Source of the DNA: Burkholderia multivorans ATCC BAA-247
Lineage (GTDB): Bacteria > Pseudomonadota > Gammaproteobacteria > Burkholderiales > Burkholderiaceae
NCBI RefSeq assembly: GCF_000959525.1
Contig: NZ_CP009832.1
Location: 1,364,001-1,428,000, forward strand
Length of the DNA: 64,000 nucleotides
Reading direction: 5' to 3'
Shown: in pieces, positions 9,696 to 62,256 of the stretch
How the letters are laid out: each line of letters begins with the position of its first letter
Numbering within the stretch: position 1 is the first letter of the stretch
Position numbers and translations under genes: made by a program
Notes under the pieces: model-generated
Told to the model about the DNA's origin: nothing
Database searches by the model: none
What the model saw: the letters and a program-made list of their open reading frames with translations, nothing else

Positions 9696-9823
9696 CGTTT
9701 TCGAAACATCGTTTCAGGAGTTTAACCGGCAACGGTGTTTCGTGCAGTCTCTCAGGTTCTAGCACGGCCCTCGGAATGGCTAGAACTTTTTTAGCGCCAC
9801 GGTCTCCGTGGCGCTTTTTTTTT
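9696..9823 (+). ncRNA. candidate small RNA ending in an intrinsic terminator
   Basis: In a 550-bp gap without a protein gene, a promoter-like element is followed by about 130 nt that end in a near-perfect terminator. The 3' half contains a perfect 8-bp inverted repeat, GTTCTAGC (9756-9763) and GCTAGAAC (9779-9786), followed by six Ts. The terminator hairpin and a second T-run come next. Stem-loop, U-rich linker, terminator is the architecture of Hfq-type trans-acting sRNAs. No coding frame with a ribosome-binding site is seen. The neighbouring phoX transcript comes from the opposite strand and has its own terminator, so this hairpin is not explained by it. Expression is not known from sequence alone. 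Confidence 0.4.
9793..9823 (+). terminator. strong rho-independent terminator
   Basis: A 10-bp perfect stem (AGCGCCACGG at 9793-9802 with CCGTGGCGCT at 9806-9815) has a 3-nt loop and is followed by Ts to 9823. The T-run is on the plus strand, so it ends a rightward transcript, probably the candidate sRNA. Confidence 0.85.
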
Positions 9824-40252: not shown

Positions 40253-40278
40253 TCAGAGGGATGGCGGCGAAGCCCGTA

Positions 40279-40376
40279 CGCTTCCCTGCGCTGGCATTAT
40301 CCAGATCAGGTTCAAAGGGTATTTCTCACCCACAATGCCGGCCGGTTCGACCGGGAGCATTGCAGGACCCCCGCGT
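40279..40376 (-). promoter_or_regulatory. TPP (THI-box) riboswitch of thiC
   Basis: The minus strand shows the conserved THI elements in order: GGGGTCC at the 5' side, TGAGAAATACCC, TTTGAACCTGATC, GGATAATGCCAGC and AGGGAAGC. These form the pyrimidine- and pyrophosphate-sensing helices. The aptamer ends about 135 nt before the thiC start. No T-run follows the aptamer before thiC, so translational control (masking AAGGAG at about 40150) is more likely than transcription termination. The rest of the 40145-40889 gap holds only the terminator at 40696-40729. Confidence 0.93.
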
Positions 40377-40695
40377 TAGCAAGGGCACACGATACACCGG
40401 CTTCGCGGCGGATTCAACCGGAACCGGCCGCGGCGCGACGTGCGCGCGCAGCATCGCCGGCGCCCGCCTCGCACGCACTGCGCGACGCACGCGTGTGCCG
40501 GCGGCTGCGCACTGCAGCATCGTGCCGTGCGGCGTGTGCGGAAAACTTCGGGACCGCGATCGTTTCGACGGGCGTCGCCGCTTTGCGGCGTACGACACGC
40601 GCGCCGGCCGCCGAAATGTCGCGCCGAAACGTCAGTCCTGTTCCTTTCAGCAGTGTCAGGCGATGCTTTCGAATCCTTGGTGCCATAATGCCGAG

Positions 40696-48629: not shown

Positions 48630-49655
48630 TTACGCGCGACGCAGTTGCACGTCGGCCGCGGGCGGTGCGACGGTCGCGCCGTCGCGCACCGCGTGCGGCA
48701 GAATTAGCGACGTGCGTTCGATCGCGGCGCCGCCGATCGCGTCGATCAATCGTCGCCACGCATGGCGGCCGATGTCGCGGTTCGGCGTCGCGACACTCGC
48801 GAGCGGCGGCGCGAGCAGCTCGCCGATGTCGATGCCGTCGAAGCCGAGTACCGACAGATCGTCCGGGATCGAGAAACCGGCGCGGCGCAGCCCGCGCATC
48901 ACGACCATCGCGAGCAGGTCGTTGCTGCAGAAGAGGGCGGTCGGGCGCGTCGCGTGCGCGGTCAGATGCGCGAGCACCGCGTCGGGCAGTTCGGGCGCGT
49001 TGAAGTCGACTTCGACGGGTGGCAGCGTCGCGACGCCGCTTTCGGCGAGCGCCTGCGCATAGCCGAGATGACGCTGGCGCGCGCGATCGGATGCGGCGAG
49101 CGAGCCCGCGAGCATCAGCACGCGACGATGGCCGCGCGCGGTGAGCAGCCGCACGCCGTCGTATGCGGCGTGCCGGTTGTCGACCGACACCGACGGCCGG
49201 CGCTGCGTGTCGTTGTGCATCAGCACGTAATGCGGTCCGTCGCGATCGAGCATGTCGAGGAGCGGATGCGTGTCGGCGTCGGCGACGGTCAGGATCAGGC
49301 CTTCGACGCGCTGCTCGCGCAGCGTCTCGATCGCGTGACGTTCGCGCGCCGCGTCGTATTCGGTCGTCATCAGGATCAGCTTGAAGCCGGCCGCGGTCGC
49401 GAGTTCGTCGATGCCGAGCAGGCAGTCGGCGAACACGGGATTCGACAGCGTCGGCACGACGACGCCGACGAGCCGCGTGCGCTCGCCGCGCAACTGCCGG
49501 CCGAGCGGACTCGGACGAAAGCGCAGCGTATCGATCGCGGTGCGGATTGCTTCGAGCGTCGCCGGGCTGACGGTGTGCGGCGCATTGATCGCGCGCGACA
49601 CGGTGGCGATCGAAAAGCCGGCGAGTGCGGCGACATCCTTGATGGTCGAGGTCAT
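48630..49655 (-). CDS. LacI-family transcriptional regulator
   Basis: A 341-residue LacI/GalR repressor. The N-terminal HTH is TIKDVAALAGFSIATVSRAI, and the hinge region is SPLGRQLRGERTRLVGVVVP. The periplasmic-binding-protein-like core runs to the end (ALFCSNDLLAMVVMRGLRRA, LSVLGFDGIDIGELLAPPL). It lies 66 bp upstream of the ABC-transporter genes on the same strand. Two palindromic LacI-type sites stand just before its start at 49655, so it probably represses itself and the transporter operon until an inducer (perhaps the transported compound) binds. Confidence 0.9.
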   Translation of the reverse strand: MTSTIKDVAALAGFSIATVSRAINAPHTVSPATLEAIRTAIDTLRFRPSPLGRQLRGERTRLVGVVVPTLSNPVFADCLLGIDELATAAGFKLILMTTEYDAARERHAIETLREQRVEGLILTVADADTHPLLDMLDRDGPHYVLMHNDTQRRPSVSVDNRHAAYDGVRLLTARGHRRVLMLAGSLAASDRARQRHLGYAQALAESGVATLPPVEVDFNAPELPDAVLAHLTAHATRPTALFCSNDLLAMVVMRGLRRAGFSIPDDLSVLGFDGIDIGELLAPPLASVATPNRDIGRHAWRRLIDAIGGAAIERTSLILPHAVRDGATVAPPAADVQLRRA

Positions 49656-49668
49656 GAGGTCACGCGAT

Positions 49669-49707
49669 GTAAACGTTTTCGGCGGGTTGATTATCGAAAA
49701 CGTTTGT
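49669..49707 (-). promoter_or_regulatory. tandem LacI-type operators (AAACGTTT cores)
   Basis: GTAAACGTTTTCG and CGAAAACGTTTGTG each hold the palindromic core AAACGTTT (49671-49678 and 49698-49705), 27 bp centre to centre, starting 14 bp before the LacI start codon. The core matches LacI/PurR-class operators. The rest of the 49656-49982 gap shows nothing further. Confidence 0.65.
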
Positions 49708-49982
49708 GACCTGTCGATGACGCGTGAAGGGGGCGTATCGCGGTGTGCGTGCGCGTCGCGCGCAAGAGGGTCGGCGCGGCGCGGAGGCAGTTCCGATTGT
49801 ATCGGCGGATGCGTCGATGCGGGGCGAAACCGCATGCGTTCGCGGGATTGGCGTCGGTTACGGCGGATTATTCCGGCGGCGCATCGCTGCGTGCGGACGC
49901 GAGAGCATGCTTCGACGGTTCGCGGCATGCCTGAATCGGGGAACGCACGCGCGACCAATGGTAGAATCGCGTCCGCCCTGTT

Positions 49983-50317
49983 GCCGGGGTGATGAAATTG
50001 GTAAACATAGCGGACTTAAACGATTGAGTGCCCGGCTGGAAACGGTCGGTGCAGAACCCTTCAAATTCGGCGAAACCCCTGATGTGCGCATCGAGGCAAC
50101 GCCGAGCCAAGCCTCGCGGGCACCGCGAGGAAGGTGTAGAGACTAGACGGGGGGCGCCTAAGGCGCACGGGTCGGCAGCACGCCCGCGCGCGACGGCGAA
50201 GGCATAGTCCAGCGCACGAACGATGTCGTTCAGACGACGTCGGCTTCGAAAGAAGCAGTGTGACGAAAATCCGCCGCCTTAACTGGCTTGCCGGTTCGAG
50301 TCCGGTCCCCGGCACCA
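49983..50317 (+). tRNA. tRNA-Leu(UAA) interrupted by a group I intron
   Basis: The exons are 49983-50017 and 50266-50317. Joined, they give an 87-nt tRNA: acceptor GCCGGGG pairs with CCCCGGC, followed by A and an encoded CCA (50315-50317). The anticodon stem GCGGA pairs perfectly with TCCGC across the intron, giving loop CUUAAAA with anticodon UAA. The D region is GAAATTGGTAAACA, a long variable arm is present as expected for Leu, and the T stem is CCGG/CCGG around TTCGAGT. The break falls between U34 and A35, the same site used by cyanobacterial tRNA-Leu introns. Mature tRNA depends on splicing. Confidence 0.93.
50018..50265 (+). ncRNA. group I self-splicing intron (IC3-like) in tRNA-Leu(UAA)
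   Basis: A 248-nt insertion. The 5' exon ends in ACUU, which pairs with the guide GAGU (50026-50029) to form P1, with the expected U-G wobble at the splice site. The intron ends in G (50265). Core elements are present in order: P-like TTCGGCGAAACCCC and Q-like AACGCCGAGCCAAGCC (P4 strands GGCG/CGCC), R AAGGTGTAGAGACTAGACGG (50131-50150) and S AAGGCATAGTCC (50199-50210). P7 forms between GACTA (50141-50145) and TAGTC (50205-50209). There is no open reading frame for a homing endonuclease, so it is likely immobile but catalytic. Confidence 0.92.
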
Positions 50318-50471
50318 CGGCCTTTCAACGTGAACTTGGCTGTCAAGTGGAACCGTGTAGAAACAACAGGTTACAGCGAGAGCCCTGTTCATCCATACAA
50401 GTATTATTCCCCTCAATTTGGGGAGAGTTGTAGAACGGATTCCCCATCTACTACGCACGACTCTCCCCACG

Positions 50472-51300
50472 ATGGCATCGATCACCCCACACAAAGACGG
50501 CTTCCGCGTGCAGGTCTACGTCGGTGGCGTGCGCGATTCGAAGGTGCTGCGCACGCGCCGCGAGGCAAACGCGTGGGGCGCTGCGCGCGAGGCTGAACTG
50601 AAACGCCTCGGCGACATGCCGGCCGCCGATAGACATACCCTTGGCGAAGCGCTTGCCGAATACTCGAAGCGTGTGTCGCCCAAGAAGGGCGGAACGAAGT
50701 GGGAGCAGAACCGCATTGCCTCTTTCATCAAGCAGTTCCCCGAGTACGCAGAGAGGCCGTTGTCGCAGGCGGATACCCCGATGTGGGCCGAATGGCGTGA
50801 TCGTCGACTATCCGGATATATCGCGCCCGATGGGAAGAAGGTGCGCGGCATCAAGCCCGGATCGGTCCTGCGCGAGATCAATCTGTATCGGAACGTCTAC
50901 ACGATTGCGCGAAGGGAATGGAAGTGGATCCAGTCCAGCCCGTTTGCGGACCTTGGTTTGCCACCAGACAGCGTGCCGCGGACGCGACGCGTTGATCCAT
51001 GGAAGGAAGTGCGCCCGATCGTGCGCTGGCTCGGGTACCGGACCGGTCAGGAGCCGACGACGAAGAATCAGGAGGTCGCGCTCGCGTGGCTTGTGGCGCT
51101 CCGTTGCGGCATGCGCGCGAAGGAATTGCGCGGGCTCGGGAAGAATACGCTGAACATGAAAACGGGCGTCGCACGGCTGCCGCACAAGATGCAGTACCTG
51201 ACAGGGAAACCGCGCGAAATTCCTTTGCCGCGCCCGGCGCTGCGCCTACTGAAGGCGGTCGCTCATCGCGAACAGTGCTTCACGGTGGAAGCTGGCTCGA
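50472..51300 (+). pseudogene. tyrosine recombinase (phage/island integrase), 3'-truncated
   Basis: The start is MASITPHKDGFRVQVYVGGV with an AP2-like arm-binding N-terminus, then a SAM-like core-binding region (TLGEALAEYSKRVSPKKGGT). The first catalytic Arg is in LVALRCGMRAKELRGLG. Integrase similarity stops after REQCFTVEAG (about residue 276). The HxxR box, the second His and the catalytic Tyr are all missing, and the frame runs on into unrelated sequence to 51488. On the other strand at 51300-51350 a short frame begins MKGKQDSVKQIWFGR with a good Shine-Dalgarno, an unidentified 5' gene fragment abutting the break. The gene begins 155 bp past the tRNA end, the usual place for a tRNA-targeting island integrase. 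Inactive. Confidence 0.8.
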
Positions 51301-51730
51301 TGGATACGGCCGAACCAGATCTGCTTCACCGAGTCTTGCTTGCCCTTCATCTCCAATCTCCCGTTCCTATCGTGAAAATCGCCTCCGAAACGCCAACGCT
51401 CGTTTGTGGCCTGGATCCCCAGAGCAGTTCACGGAAACTCCCAAGCGAAGTGCGCCGATGCGGAAATGTAGCGACGGAGCGGCCATAGCTGACCGTACTC
51501 GGGTGGGCGATATGTGGTCACAGACTCGATCGCGGGACATGTGCAGATTCGACCTCGCAATTCTGTCAGGGATTTTTGAGATGACGGCTGAGGTAATATT
51601 CGCGCCGATTGCCGAAGTCAATGCTTTCGATACGCCCGACTAACACAATGCGCTGTTTGGCTTGTCGGATTGGGATTACGGATCGGCGAACTCGTCATTA
51701 ATACAAGTGCGGAGAGTTTTCAGTTAGTTC

Positions 51731-52354
51731 GTGACTTCTCAGCAACGCTTGACATTTGTTGACGCTGCGGGTGGTACAACAAGTGACGGGAAGACGACCC
51801 TTGCGCAGATTACTGCACAGGCGAATCCGGAATTGCAGGCGTGCATTATGTCGAATGCAAGCTCGGCACCGGCTGGTGATGTGCCGAGCATTACTTATCT
51901 GCAGACCGGGAAAGGGGGAAGCTGGAACATCACGGGACCGTTCACGAAATTCGATCAATCCGATGCGAACTATGTGCGAAACACAACAGCGGAAGCGATG
52001 GGGATGATTTCGACAAATGCCGGACGTGTATCATCGAATGCGGTGGCGGGGGCAGCTGTAACGCCTTGCTCCGCGGTTTGCGACGGGATCGCATTTGCAG
52101 GGACAGTGGTAGGAATTGTCGCAAATGCAATCGGACAATTAGTTAAGCCGGATACAGGGCAGTATCTATTTAACGGATTTACGGCCATCGTTTCAAACTA
52201 TATTTCAGCGGCCAACCCCGCATTTACTCCGGCAATTAATGAGCTTGCAAGTCAAGTCAATGGTAGTGGTGTTGCTAAAGTCGGTCAAAATAAGTTGAAT
52301 CGGATTGTCGGTACTGATTCGTCAAATGGGAAAAATGAAGATCGAATTTATTGA
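51731..52354 (+). CDS. orphan toxin-like C-terminal module (probable BcpA/CdiA-CT remnant)
   Basis: A 207-residue frame starting at a GTG (MTSQQRLTFVDAAGG), with no signal peptide and a stop codon two codons upstream. Composition is richer in Asn, Ser, Thr and Ile than its neighbours, and the DNA is visibly more AT-rich. A hydrophobic central stretch (GIAFAGTVVGIVANAIGQLV) precedes a soluble tail ending GTDSSNGKNEDRIY. I do not recognise a domain. It lies directly before a small membrane protein and a TpsB transporter, the A-I-(O)-B order of Burkholderia CDI loci, so it is read as the 3' end of a large exoprotein whose 5' part is gone. That role is an inference. Confidence 0.5.
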   Translation: MTSQQRLTFVDAAGGTTSDGKTTLAQITAQANPELQACIMSNASSAPAGDVPSITYLQTGKGGSWNITGPFTKFDQSDANYVRNTTAEAMGMISTNAGRVSSNAVAGAAVTPCSAVCDGIAFAGTVVGIVANAIGQLVKPDTGQYLFNGFTAIVSNYISAANPAFTPAINELASQVNGSGVAKVGQNKLNRIVGTDSSNGKNEDRIY

Positions 52355-52604
52355 GGATGGAAATTTCACCTCGTGGTTCCGGTTCTTGCTCATCGCTGTA
52401 GGGGTAGCATTTGCTGCCATCGCTGTTGAGTGCGACATCCCCATTCTGTGGGCGCGAATTCTTTTGCTTTCTGGTTTCGCTATCGCGCTTGTCGGCGGTA
52501 TGACGAGCCGTGCTAAATTGCTTCATATCAAGCCGTTTGGCAATAGCTACAAGAAGGCCCATAAAAGCTATGAAACAAAAAGCGACGAGGACCAGAAATT
52601 GTAG
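52335..52604 (+). CDS. small membrane protein, candidate CDI immunity protein
   Basis: An 89-residue protein (MKIEFIEDGNFTSWFRFLLI). It has two hydrophobic helices (about residues 15-32 and 38-58: FLLIAVGVAFAAIAVE and ARILLLSGFAIALVGG) and a basic C-terminal tail. The start overlaps the preceding frame by 20 bp. ATG 52326 (MGKMKIEF) is an equal alternative, and a TTG at 52305 is less likely. Immunity genes sit directly after, and often overlap, the toxin end in CDI systems. A membrane immunity protein would fit a membrane-acting toxin. There is no sequence match to a known family by eye. Confidence 0.5.
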   Translation: MKIEFIEDGNFTSWFRFLLIAVGVAFAAIAVECDIPILWARILLLSGFAIALVGGMTSRAKLLHIKPFGNSYKKAHKSYETKSDEDQKL

Positions 52605-52618
52605 GGCGACGCTGGTCT

Positions 52619-54121
52619 TTGTCATGGCTCGCGCCGGAGCTTTTCCTGGGAAAGATTCGCTTTTTGGGGGGCGCGTCCACCCTCCCGATGGATCGATTTT
52701 CTTTCGCCCGCGAATGGTTGGAGCACTATGCTGGCCAGTGCGTCGGCAAGCAAGGTATCGATGTGCTGGTCAAGGGTCTATCGCAAGCCATCCTGGCGCG
52801 CGGCTACGTGACGACACGTGTGCTGCTGCCCGAACAGGACCTGTCGACTGGTGCCCTCAAGTTTTCACTGATTCCCGGCGTGATCCGCCATGTGCGCTTC
52901 GCCGACGAAAAGCTCCGCGGCACCTGGAAAACCGCCTTTCCGACTGGCGACGGCGAACTGCTGAATCTGCGCGACCTCGAACAGGGCCTCGAGCAGATGA
53001 AACGCGTGTCGAGCCAGGATGTGTCGATGCAGATCGTGCCGGCTGAGGTGCCCGGCGAAAGCGACATCGTGCTCGACGTAAAGCGCGGCAAGCCGTGGAC
53101 CATCGTCGCGTCGATCGATAACTCCGGAACGCGTGCGACCGGGAAGCTGCAGGGCAATTTGTCGCTCGGGATCGATAACCCGCTGGGCCTGAACGAGGTC
53201 TTCAATATTGGCGTCAGCCAGGATCTCGAATTTGGCGACAAGCGCCTGGGCTCGCACGGCTGGAACGGCTTCTACTCGATTCCGTGGGGCTACTGGACCG
53301 CGACGCTGTCCGCGTACACGAATACCTACTACCAGCAAATCGCCGGCGTGAACCAAACATTCGTGGCGAGCGGCAATTCGAAGACGCTCGATTTCAAGCT
53401 GGCCCGAGTGCTCGCCCGTAGTCAGAATGGCGTGCTCGGTACGTACGTTCGCCTGTCGCGTCGTTTCGGACAAAGCTTCATCGAAGACACCGAGATTTCG
53501 CAGCAGCGCCGCAATAACACGACGATCGAGCTTGGGCTGACCGATCGCCACTACTTCGGTGGCGCTCAGTTCGATGGCTCGCTTGCATATCGTCAAGGTG
53601 TCGGTGGATTGGGTGCTCAGGAAGACACGTTGGCAGCGGGTGGTGGGCCGACCTATCGCTTCAAGATGGCCGTGCTGGATGCGAACCTGTCGGTGCCGTT
53701 CGCGATCGGCAAGCAGACGTTTCGCTATGTCGGCACGCTCCACGGCCAGTACACGGGCAACACACTCTATTACATCGACGACCTGACCATCGGTAGCCGC
53801 TACACCGTGCGCGGTTTCGACGGTGAAACGATGCTCGCCGCGGCGCGCGGATTCTATTGGCGCAACGAATTGCAGGCACCGATCGGCCAGACGGGGCAGG
53901 CACTTTATGCGGGACTCGACTATGGTCGAGTTTGGGGCCCGCAACCTGTTGCCCTCGTCGGTACGCAGTTGGCTGGAGCAGTGATCGGCCTAAAGGGCAG
54001 CGTGGGCACGCGACTCGGAACCTATGCGTACGATCTCTTCGCCGGTACGCCGGTTTACAAGCCGTCAGGTTTTCCGACGGCACGTGTGACGCTCGGTTTT
54101 CAGGTGACCGCTCAGTTCTGA
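52619..54121 (+). pseudogene. TpsB/ShlB/FhaC-type outer-membrane transporter lacking its N-terminus (BcpB-like)
   Basis: A 500-codon frame covering the end of POTRA1, POTRA2 (LSTGALKFSLIPGVIRHVRF, VPGESDIVLDVKRGKPWTIV) and the 16-strand beta-barrel, ending in the canonical VTLGFQVTAQF with terminal Phe. The barrel motif SRYTVRGFDGE is the L6/VRGY-type tip. Full-length members are about 560-590 residues and begin with a signal peptide and plug helix. Here the frame opens at a TTG within SWLAPELFLGKIRFLGG, so the signal and first about 70 residues are absent. Without export it cannot reach the outer membrane. It follows the toxin/immunity-like pair. Confidence 0.8.
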
Positions 54122-61070: not shown

Positions 61071-62093
61071 ATGAAGACGTATTTCCATCCCGAGCAATTG
61101 CTGCACCATCCGCGCACGTATCTGTCGCGCGGGCAGATGCGGGCGCCGCAGGAAGTGCCGGAGCGCGCGGCGCGCCTGGTCGCCGCTGTGCGTGCACTCG
61201 ACTTCGACGTGCGCGAGCCGGCCGACCGCGGCACGGCGCCGATCGCGGCCGTGCACGACATGAACTACCTGCGCTTTCTCGAGGACGCGCACCGCGACTG
61301 GAAGAAGATGCCCGACGACTGGGGCGACGAAGTGATGTCGAACATCTTCGTGCGCGATCCGAATCCGCTGCGCGGCGTGCTCGCGAAAGCCGCGCGCTAT
61401 CTCGCGGACGGCAGCTGCCCGATCGGTGCGAACACGTGGCGTGCCGCCTACTGGTCCGCGCAGAGCGCGCTCGCGGCTGCGGCCGACGTGAACGACGGCG
61501 CGCGCGACGCGTATGCGCTGTGCCGGCCGCCCGGCCATCACGCGCGCCGCGATGCGGCGGGCGGCTTCTGCTATCTGAACAACGCGGCGATCGCCGCGCA
61601 GGCGCTGCTCGGCCGCCATCGGCGCGTCGCGATCCTCGACACCGACATGCATCACGGGCAGGGCGTGCAGGAAATCTTCTACGGTCGCGACGACGTGCTG
61701 TACGTGTCGATTCACGGCGATCCGACCGACTTCTATCCGGTCGTCGCCGGCTACGAAGACGAAACGGGCGCCGGCGCCGGCGCGGGCTACAACCTGAACC
61801 TGCCGATGCCGCACGGTTCGCCGGAGGCGGTGTTCTTCGAGCGCCTCGACGACGCGTTGCGCGCGCTCGCGCGCTTCGAGCCCGACGCGCTCGTGCTCGC
61901 GCTCGGCTTCGACATCTACAAGGACGATCCGCAGTCGCAGGTCGCGGTGACGACCGACGGCTTCGGCCGGCTCGGCAGCGCGATCGGCGCGCTCGGTCTG
62001 CCGACCGTGATCGTGCAGGAAGGCGGCTATCACCTCGACAGCCTCGACGCGAACGCGCGCGCGTTCTTCGGCGGCTTCGGCGCGGCGCGCTGA
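61071..62093 (+). CDS. histone-deacetylase-like (acetylpolyamine) amidohydrolase
   Basis: A 340-residue zinc amidohydrolase of the arginase/HDAC fold. Active-site segments are CRPPGHHARRDAAGGFCYLN (tandem His), ILDTDMHHGQG (metal Asp and His), LALGFDIYKDDP (metal Asp) and QEGGYHLDSL. Bacterial relatives such as acetylpolyamine amidohydrolases remove acetyl groups from N-acetylputrescine or similar amines. It starts 25 bp after the carbamoylase stop and is the third gene of the unit. Together the two hydrolases could act on acetylated or carbamoylated amines. This is a working inference. Confidence 0.87.
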   Translation: MKTYFHPEQLLHHPRTYLSRGQMRAPQEVPERAARLVAAVRALDFDVREPADRGTAPIAAVHDMNYLRFLEDAHRDWKKMPDDWGDEVMSNIFVRDPNPLRGVLAKAARYLADGSCPIGANTWRAAYWSAQSALAAAADVNDGARDAYALCRPPGHHARRDAAGGFCYLNNAAIAAQALLGRHRRVAILDTDMHHGQGVQEIFYGRDDVLYVSIHGDPTDFYPVVAGYEDETGAGAGAGYNLNLPMPHGSPEAVFFERLDDALRALARFEPDALVLALGFDIYKDDPQSQVAVTTDGFGRLGSAIGALGLPTVIVQEGGYHLDSLDANARAFFGGFGAAR

Positions 62094-62256
62094 GCGTGCC
62101 GGCGGCCGGTGCGCGAAGCAGGCGCCGGGCCGATGACGACGCGACATGGGCCGGATGACCGGCCCGTGTGCGCTGGTGCGCCTGATTGAATTCGGCACTG
62201 CGCGCGCCGCGACGCCGATGCGTACGGCTCGGCCGCGACGCTCGACGGTGCCGGCG

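What the first reader, a model, noticed from the sequence alone, without database searches (positions are those of the whole stretch)
49983..50317. Group I intron inside tRNA-Leu(UAA) of a betaproteobacterium
The tRNA exons rebuild a perfect Leu(UAA) tRNA only if 248 nt are removed between U34 and A35. The removed piece carries the P, Q, R and S core blocks, a P7 pairing and a terminal G, and has no endonuclease gene. The same host site is used by the well-known cyanobacterial tRNA-Leu(UAA) introns, so this copy bears on vertical versus horizontal inheritance of IC3 introns.
Basis: partly seen in the sequence, partly recalled or inferred. Interest (0 to 1): 0.8.

Follow-up and report, generated by a model that had tools for sequence, protein, structure and literature searches.

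The report
Self-splicing intron in a tRNA-Leu gene
The only gene found in this bacterium for the tRNA that reads the leucine codon UUA appears to be interrupted by a small RNA that must splice itself out; it is a new member of a known kind of intron, present in each genome of its genus that was searched and far more widespread in bacteria than the best-known cyanobacterial cases suggest.

Summary
A tRNA-Leu(UAA) gene at 49983-50317 is split by 248 nt (50018-50265) between U34 and A35. ARAGORN with introns allowed gives the same boundaries. A covariance model built without betaproteobacterial rows finds the intron core at 107 bits, E 1.8e-26, its only match in the window. Core pairs covary across 38 relatives. 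Rfam RF00028 hits it only below its curated cut-off, so default annotation misses it. It is a group I intron of the IC3 tRNA type without an endonuclease. All 65 genomes of the genus searched carry it full length; in 64 of 65 a pattern for an uninterrupted tRNA-Leu(UAA) finds nothing. In the family the same gene at the same locus occurs with and without it. It is not special to betaproteobacteria and cyanobacteria: of 119 core-motif matches in a capped sample, 61 were fitted as tRNA-Leu(UAA) introns, from five phyla. The tree groups it with other beta/gamma introns, but kinship to cyanobacterial introns is not rejected. A side result shows horizontal spread by tRNA gene capture: a relative is on 1257 of 72,556 plasmids. 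Splicing is inferred, not shown.

The parts
49983..50017 (+). tRNA-Leu(UAA) exon 1 (G1 to U34)
   Evidence: sequence
50018..50265 (+). group I (IC3-type) intron, 248 nt, first base A, last base G (omega G)
50266..50317 (+). tRNA-Leu(UAA) exon 2 (A35 to encoded CCA)
50014..50029 (+). P1: 50014-50017 (exon ACUU) with 50026-50029 (GAGU); splice-site pair U34.G50026
   Evidence: U.G in 33 of 38 rows, C-G in 5
50024..50267 (+). P10: 50024-50025 (UU) with exon 2 50266-50267 (AA)
   Evidence: invariant, so no test
50032..50049 (+). P2, 7 pairs, GAAA loop
   Evidence: 7 of 7 pairs with two-sided changes, 93.2% paired
50057..50154 (+). P3: 50057-50062 with 50149-50154
   Evidence: 100% paired, one pair with two-sided changes (UG/GC/UA/CG)
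50067..50105 (+). P4: 50067-50072 with 50100-50105
   Evidence: 96.5% paired, no two-sided change
50078..50096 (+). P5 and its hairpin: 50078-50084 with 50089-50096
   Evidence: 91.3% paired, 3 of 7 pairs with two-sided changes
50112..50130 (+). P6, 8 pairs
   Evidence: 8 of 8 pairs with two-sided changes, 79.8% paired
50141..50209 (+). P7 (guanosine-binding helix, crosses P3): 50141-50145 with 50205-50209
   Evidence: 100% paired, two pairs compensated (C-G to G-C and U-A to C-G in 11 rows)
50155..50198 (+). P8: 50155-50158 with 50195-50198
   Evidence: 100% paired, one pair G-C/A-U/G-U
50214..50261 (+). P9: 50214-50217 with 50258-50261, enclosing P9a (50221-50242) and P9b (50243-50256, GAAA loop)
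   Evidence: P9 100% paired with one compensated pair; the outer part of P9a is weak (70.4% paired, 18-20 rows gapped)
48630..49721 (-). upstream neighbour: LacI-family regulator gene, the conserved side of the locus

Best explanation
This is a small group I (IC3-type) intron in the anticodon loop of tRNA-Leu(UAA). The precursor is transcribed with the intron inside. P1 pairs the 5' exon end CUU with GAG of the intron and places a U.G pair at the splice site; guanosine bound in P7 attacks after U34; the freed exon then attacks after the terminal G, guided by P10, joining U34 to A35. Shown here: boundaries, conserved core with covariation, presence in the whole genus as sampled, no other tRNA-Leu(UAA) found in the genome. 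Inferred: that it splices, that it does so without protein, and that it is essential because this tRNA would be the only reader of UUA.
For: Boundaries. Core model without beta rows: 107 bits, only match in the window. Covariation on 38 rows incl. compensated pairs in P3, P7, P8, P9. ARAGORN's own boundaries put U before and G at the end of the intron in all 23 Leu(UAA) rows of the other genera of the family that were fetched. Full-length copy in 65 of 65 genus genomes, 81-97% identical to the window. Uninterrupted-gene pattern: no match in 64 of 65; no other UAA leucine tRNA found in the own genome. A related alphaproteobacterial tRNA-Arg(CCU) group I intron was shown to splice in vivo and self-splice in vitro (PMC7717549, passages seen).
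Against: No RNA data. RF00028 score is below its gathering cut-off, so by Rfam's own rule it is not a member. The free single-strand fold (z -2.99) has no P3/P7 pseudoknot, as expected of a nested-only method, so it lends little. The structure counted was drawn from the window sequence, which favours it over slid versions. Model R1 includes the window and is no independent test.
Confidence: 0.94

Rival explanations
1. A decayed intron in a tRNA pseudogene; UUA is read by another tRNA.
For: Very few UUA codons: 4 in 16,812 codons of a rough gene set from the window. One genome of the genus (G061) does have an extra uninterrupted tRNA-Leu(UAA). One weak tRNA match of the own genome (C3:1519112-1519175) stayed without a call.
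Against: No other UAA leucine tRNA was found in the own genome. Exons rebuild a full cloverleaf. The core keeps compensated pairs.
Confidence: 0.02
2. A real group I intron that cannot splice alone and needs a host protein cofactor.
For: Precedent in fungi (PMC3984707, passages) and the presumption, quoted in PMC7717549 (passage), that group I introns need protein cofactors to some extent in vivo.
Against: Small tRNA introns with similar cores self-splice in vitro (Anabaena and Azoarcus: recalled, and reference titles; Bartonella).
Confidence: 0.15
3. A recent transfer of the cyanobacterial or plastid trnL intron into the Burkholderia lineage.
For: Same host tRNA and same site. AU test does not reject one clade of the Burkholderiaceae and cyanobacterial introns (p 0.299).
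Against: Best trees put the Burkholderiaceae introns with other beta/gamma introns (98/98; 100/95) and the cyanobacterial ones in a group of their own on a long branch. The tRNA exons are nearly those of intronless genes of the same family.
Confidence: 0.05
4. The intron is a regulatory switch: splicing rate, set by GTP or stress, limits UUA decoding and so a few UUA-bearing genes.
For: UUA is very rare, the gene appears single, and the intron is in 65 of 65 genus genomes.
Against: Many genomes of the family have an uninterrupted gene (148 of 299); small symbiont genomes also carry the intron (Ca. Vallotia); no expression data.
Confidence: 0.08

Closest known systems
Azoarcus pre-tRNA-Ile(CAU) group I intron (IC3) and its betaproteobacterial kin
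   Same: Near-identical core words by my recall of the Azoarcus sequence (not fetched); a betaproteobacterial tRNA-Ile(CAU) row (L131) aligns over the whole core
   Different: Those sit after the anticodon (36|37) of tRNA-Ile; this one at 34|35 of tRNA-Leu. The eight Ile rows are one group, 100/99; one clade with the Burkholderiaceae rows is not rejected, p 0.401
Cyanobacterial and plastid tRNA-Leu(UAA) intron
   Same: Same tRNA and same site U34|A35, similar size range (plastid introns recalled, none compared)
   Different: Core differs more; separate group on a long branch; kinship unresolved by AU test
Alphaproteobacterial tRNA-Arg(CCU) intron (Agrobacterium, Bartonella BbgpI)
   Same: Same type of core and small size in the Arg(CCU) rows found by the same motif; splicing shown for BbgpI (passages)
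   Different: Other tRNA and site (36|37)
tRNA-Leu(UAA) intron of a deep-subsurface gammaproteobacterium (Vepritskiy 2002)
   Same: Same host gene in a proteobacterium (recalled; the paper is not held)
   Different: Not compared; sequence not available here
tRNA-Ile2 group I introns in Burkholderia and Acidovorax noted by the tRNAscan-SE 2.0 paper
   Same: Group I introns in tRNA genes of the same genus, found by hand (PMC8450103, passages)
   Different: Other tRNA; the passages seen do not mention a tRNA-Leu(UAA) intron

Membership tests
Group I intron | U at the 5' splice site paired to G of the internal guide (P1) and G as last intron base | tested here: met
Group I intron | Conserved P3/P7/P8 pseudoknotted core with P4-P6 domain | tested here: met
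   two pairs of P7 and one each of P3 and P8 with two-sided changes; P4 varies on one side only
Group I intron | Match to Rfam RF00028 at the curated cut-off | tested here: not met
   38.2 bits against 50, E 2.9e-8; a relative in the same family (L062) reaches 58.5. A passage of PMC6125680 says a single alignment such as RF00028 seemed unlikely to capture group I diversity, so this lowers the Rfam label, not the structural case
Group I intron | Guanosine-initiated self-splicing | not testable with these tools
   needs RNA
Subgroup IC3 (tRNA introns) | No P5abc (PMC11835236 passage, says P5 a-d is absent from IC3); GNRA loops on P2 and P9, small size, tRNA anticodon-loop host (recalled) | tested here: met
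   P5 is one short hairpin; GAAA loops at 50039-50042 and 50248-50251; 248 nt. No subtype model was run
Cyanobacterial/plastid trnL(UAA) intron lineage | Site U34|A35 of tRNA-Leu(UAA) | tested here: met
Cyanobacterial/plastid trnL(UAA) intron lineage | Closest kinship with cyanobacterial introns | tested here: inconclusive
   best trees place it elsewhere, AU p 0.299
Mobile (homing) group I intron | Encodes a homing endonuclease | tested here: not met
   at most 82 residues fit; the three overlapping ORFs of 80 aa or more have no Pfam match better than E 0.25

The most novel reading that the evidence does not exclude
HEG-less IC3 introns at U34|A35 of tRNA-Leu(UAA) are a pan-bacterial family that spreads between lineages mainly by capture of the whole intron-bearing tRNA gene on plasmids and islands, and is then kept by vertical descent once it is the only UUA reader. 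Burkholderia shows the locked-in state (64 of 65 genomes with no uninterrupted copy found); enterobacterial resistance plasmids show the spreading state.
Probability: 0.35. Interest if true: 0.72.

Novelty: new member of a known kind. Interest (0 to 1): 0.5.

Why it matters
UUA decoding in a whole genus appears to rest on one ribozyme, and two standard tools at their defaults here (ARAGORN without introns, Rfam at gathering score) do not see it. The genus and its neighbours offer intron-bearing and intronless alleles of one gene at one locus, a natural set for testing how such introns are lost or gained. The wide spread among bacteria corrects the picture of these introns as a cyanobacterial matter with rare exceptions, and the plasmid-borne relative gives a route for horizontal spread without an endonuclease.

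Tried and rejected
A pseudogene reading was rejected because no other UAA leucine tRNA was found in the genome. ARAGORN's labels Ser, Phe and some Leu(CAA)/Leu(AAG) for intron-bearing genes were checked by re-fitting the junction to a 7-nt anticodon loop; the fit itself demands G at the intron end and favours U before it, so those two bases are no independent evidence in that step. Many labels were shifted by one to three bases and fit Leu(UAA) or fMet. Of 174 introns called, the tree used 131: 31 rows of the genus (30 loci and the duplicate of the window, L010) were left out as near-copies and 12 because they fitted no accepted host or were over 400 nt. Nine more (eight long-branch rows and L091) were left out of the careful tree, whose bootstrap had not settled; L123 and L181, also long, stayed in. 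The idea that the window's island left an exact second copy of the tRNA end was tested with its last 14 to 30 bases: none in the window. A sigma-70/terminator scan of the locus found nothing. The first extraction script had a faulty pattern and returned nothing. UUA codon counts rest on a rough choice of ORFs by third-position GC, not on annotation. The state of tRNA-Leu(UAA) in genus group g12 stayed open: of seven g12 genomes searched with model R1, two matched, one of them in a tRNA-Ile(CAU) and one without a tRNA call. No paper search was left for the plasmid-borne copy.

Full report
What is there. The window holds one tRNA-Leu(UAA) gene, 49983-50317, split into a 35-nt exon and a 52-nt exon by 248 nt. 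The intron could code for 82 residues at most; three ORFs of 80 aa or more overlap it and none has a Pfam match better than E 0.25.

Is it a group I intron? Rfam at curated cut-offs lists no intron in the window. With E-values it gives RF00028 at 38.2 bits, E 2.9e-8, over 49970-50233, the only RF00028 match in the genome at E 0.001 or better. For a test that does not depend on the window I built a model of the P3-to-P7 core from 14 introns of alphaproteobacteria, one gammaproteobacterium, cyanobacteria, Bacteroidota and Acidobacteriota. It finds 50055-50211 at 107 bits, E 1.8e-26, and nothing else in 64 kb. On an alignment of 38 introns of the family (the window and 9 of the 37 other genus loci held, and 28 of other genera) I drew P1 to P10 from the window row. 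92.9% of cells pair, against 35.8-42.7% for slid versions; 34 of 67 pairs change on both sides; no shuffle of 500 reached the covariation score. P7 has two pairs swapped in 11 rows, P3, P8 and P9 have one such pair each. P4 varies on one side only, P10 not at all, and the outer part of P9a is weak.

The only UUA reader found. The genome's 66 tRNA matches were screened by length; the 12 of 82 bases or more and one weak match were fetched and read: Ser UGA, CGA, GCU, GGA, Tyr, Leu CAG x3, CAA, UAG, GAG x2, and no call for the weak one. No UAA. In the genus 65 of 65 genomes have the full-length gene at 81-97% identity to the window. A pattern for an uninterrupted tRNA-Leu(UAA) matches 1 of 65 (G061, an extra copy beside a CAU tRNA). 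The pattern needs exact D-loop and anticodon words, so a divergent copy could escape it. UUA is rare: 4 of 16,812 codons in a rough gene set of the window.

Vertical or horizontal. In a draw of 299 genomes of the family (tabulated from the match tables, not each inspected) 97 have a match of the window's type over the whole gene or, in one case (G092), in two pieces; 20 have the second type described below (four of them beside the first); one more (G068) has an intron placed in neither count; and 148 have an uninterrupted gene. One genome has both the first type and an uninterrupted gene (G100, 70% complete), and four have the second type and an uninterrupted gene (G157, G170, G213, G225). 42 showed none of these. 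The listing was cut, so intron counts are lower bounds. Two genus groups (g20, g11) contain both states. In g20, two of the four intronless loci fetched share upstream sequence with the window and with all four intron-bearing g20 loci fetched (L266 over 1.1-2.0 kb, L267 over about 0.45 kb); a third (L268) does not and the fourth (L269) could not be parsed. In g11 one intronless and one intron-bearing locus share 2.1 kb upstream. The g10, g11 and g25 loci fetched share no upstream flank with the window, so the locus is not conserved across the family. In the genus itself 30 of 37 loci keep more than 1.2 kb of the window's upstream flank, while downstream only one of 37 (L016) shows any similarity. 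In trees the introns of the window's type form one set (100/98; 94/86 when two plasmid rows are added). Descent with repeated loss is the simplest reading; gain by recombination is not excluded.

A second type. Several genera carry a different intron in a different tRNA backbone; some of these tRNAs are Leu(UAA), five of those fetched are Leu(CAA). Two inspected genomes of group g8 (G108, G148) carry the first type (G148 inspected, G108 by match table) and the second in Leu(CAA); two more do by match table. Coordinates tie G108 and G156 to Mycetohabitans records. In the five Leu(CAA) rows the splice-site pair is C-G, not U.G, which departs from the group I rule as I know it.

How widespread. 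After fitting junctions, 61 of 119 are tRNA-Leu(UAA) introns at 34|35; others fit Arg(CCU), Ile(CAU), fMet(CAU), Thr and Asn; the rest had no call or a doubtful fit. By record title the Leu(UAA) rows come from Cyanobacteriota, Pseudomonadota (alpha, beta, gamma), Acidobacteriota, Bacteroidota and Vulcanimicrobiota; several are metagenome bins. In a draw of 398 genomes of the phylum, 41 match a core model (that model includes the window, and strict filters were used). Of the 30 loci fetched from that draw, 17 fit Leu(UAA) (the window's own among them), 4 Arg(CCU), 1 Leu(CAA), 2 odd fits and 6 had no call.

Kinship with cyanobacteria. The best trees put the window's group with other beta and gamma introns (98/98, 100/95; 92 and unstarred in the quick tree) and the 12 cyanobacterial introns in a group of their own (100/98) on a long branch. 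But the AU test rejects neither a clade of window group plus cyanobacteria (p 0.299), nor window group plus tRNA-Ile introns (p 0.401), nor one clade of all leucine introns (p 0.177). The deep order is therefore open, and one old leucine family stands beside several insertions.

A plasmid vehicle. Among named plasmid records the window's gene matches 13 over at least 80% of its length (9 Mycetohabitans, 4 Ca. Vallotia) and in all 1262, mostly enterobacterial and Acinetobacter, over part of it; no phage record matches. On plasmid pCTX-M3 the match is an intron-bearing tRNA-Leu(UAA) with both exons and, by my fit, a 213-nt intron, about 0.65 kb from the aac(3)-IId gene with one ORF between (ARAGORN mislabels it). 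The core model R2, built without it, gives it 130 bits. 1257 of 72,556 plasmid records hold at least 80% of it, as do 624 of 5426 complete E. coli genomes; in E. coli 589 places are on plasmids and 81 on chromosomes. No feature is annotated under the five rows listed in either search. Its intron pairs with that of the alphaproteobacterium Enterovirga, 94% identical, 100/96. This is transfer of an intron by passage of its whole tRNA gene. Whether it is expressed or spliced there is unknown, and print was not searched for it.

Verdict. The feature is a new member of a known kind; its interest lies in its being the sole UUA reader found in a genus, in the natural set of alleles, and in the wider distribution that the search brought out. 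All statements on splicing are inference.

Noticed in passing
L279:2995-3293 (pCTX-M3, record 61823-62121): Unannotated tRNA-Leu(UAA) with a 213-nt group I intron near aac(3)-IId; at least 80% of it is on 1257 of 72,556 plasmid records and in 624 of 5426 complete E. coli genomes; its intron groups with an alphaproteobacterial one.
   Followed up: partly
L053, L054, L069, L071, L072; also L224: Group I introns in tRNA-Leu(CAA) with C instead of U before the 5' splice site; in the five aligned rows the pair is C-G.
   Followed up: partly
L080, L084, L174, L179 (Thr UGU); L142, L143 (Asn GUU, Microbacterium and Tsukamurella); L166, L183, L195 (fMet): Group I introns at other tRNA sites, incl. a second intron in tRNA-Thr(UGU) of one genome of the window's genus (G032) and in tRNA-Arg(CCU) of another (G059). 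L142 was not fitted cleanly.
   Followed up: partly
L085 (G034), about 7 kb downstream of the tRNA: A decayed second copy of the intron's 3' end (P9b onward) plus exon 2, as if an integrated element had carried part of the ribozyme with the tRNA end.
   Followed up: partly
window 50418-54118: Directly downstream of the tRNA: an ORF with a partial phage-integrase match (profile 25-86 of 172, below Pfam's cut-off), lower GC (0.57-0.59), and a ShlB/FhaC-type two-partner secretion gene at 52619-54118: probably an island at the tRNA end.
   Followed up: partly
window 40265-40382 (-) and 9745-9822 (+): TPP riboswitch (62.2 bits) and Burkholderia sRNA ncS54 (110.5 bits).
   Followed up: no
L281 (Cupriavidus necator pBB1): A copy of the second intron type that looks broken in its 3' half; ARAGORN with introns finds no tRNA there.
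   Followed up: no
L082, L083 (G040, G038): A second group I intron in two genomes of the window's genus (98.0 and 96.5 bits with model R2); ARAGORN suggests a CAU tRNA, not fitted here.
   Followed up: no
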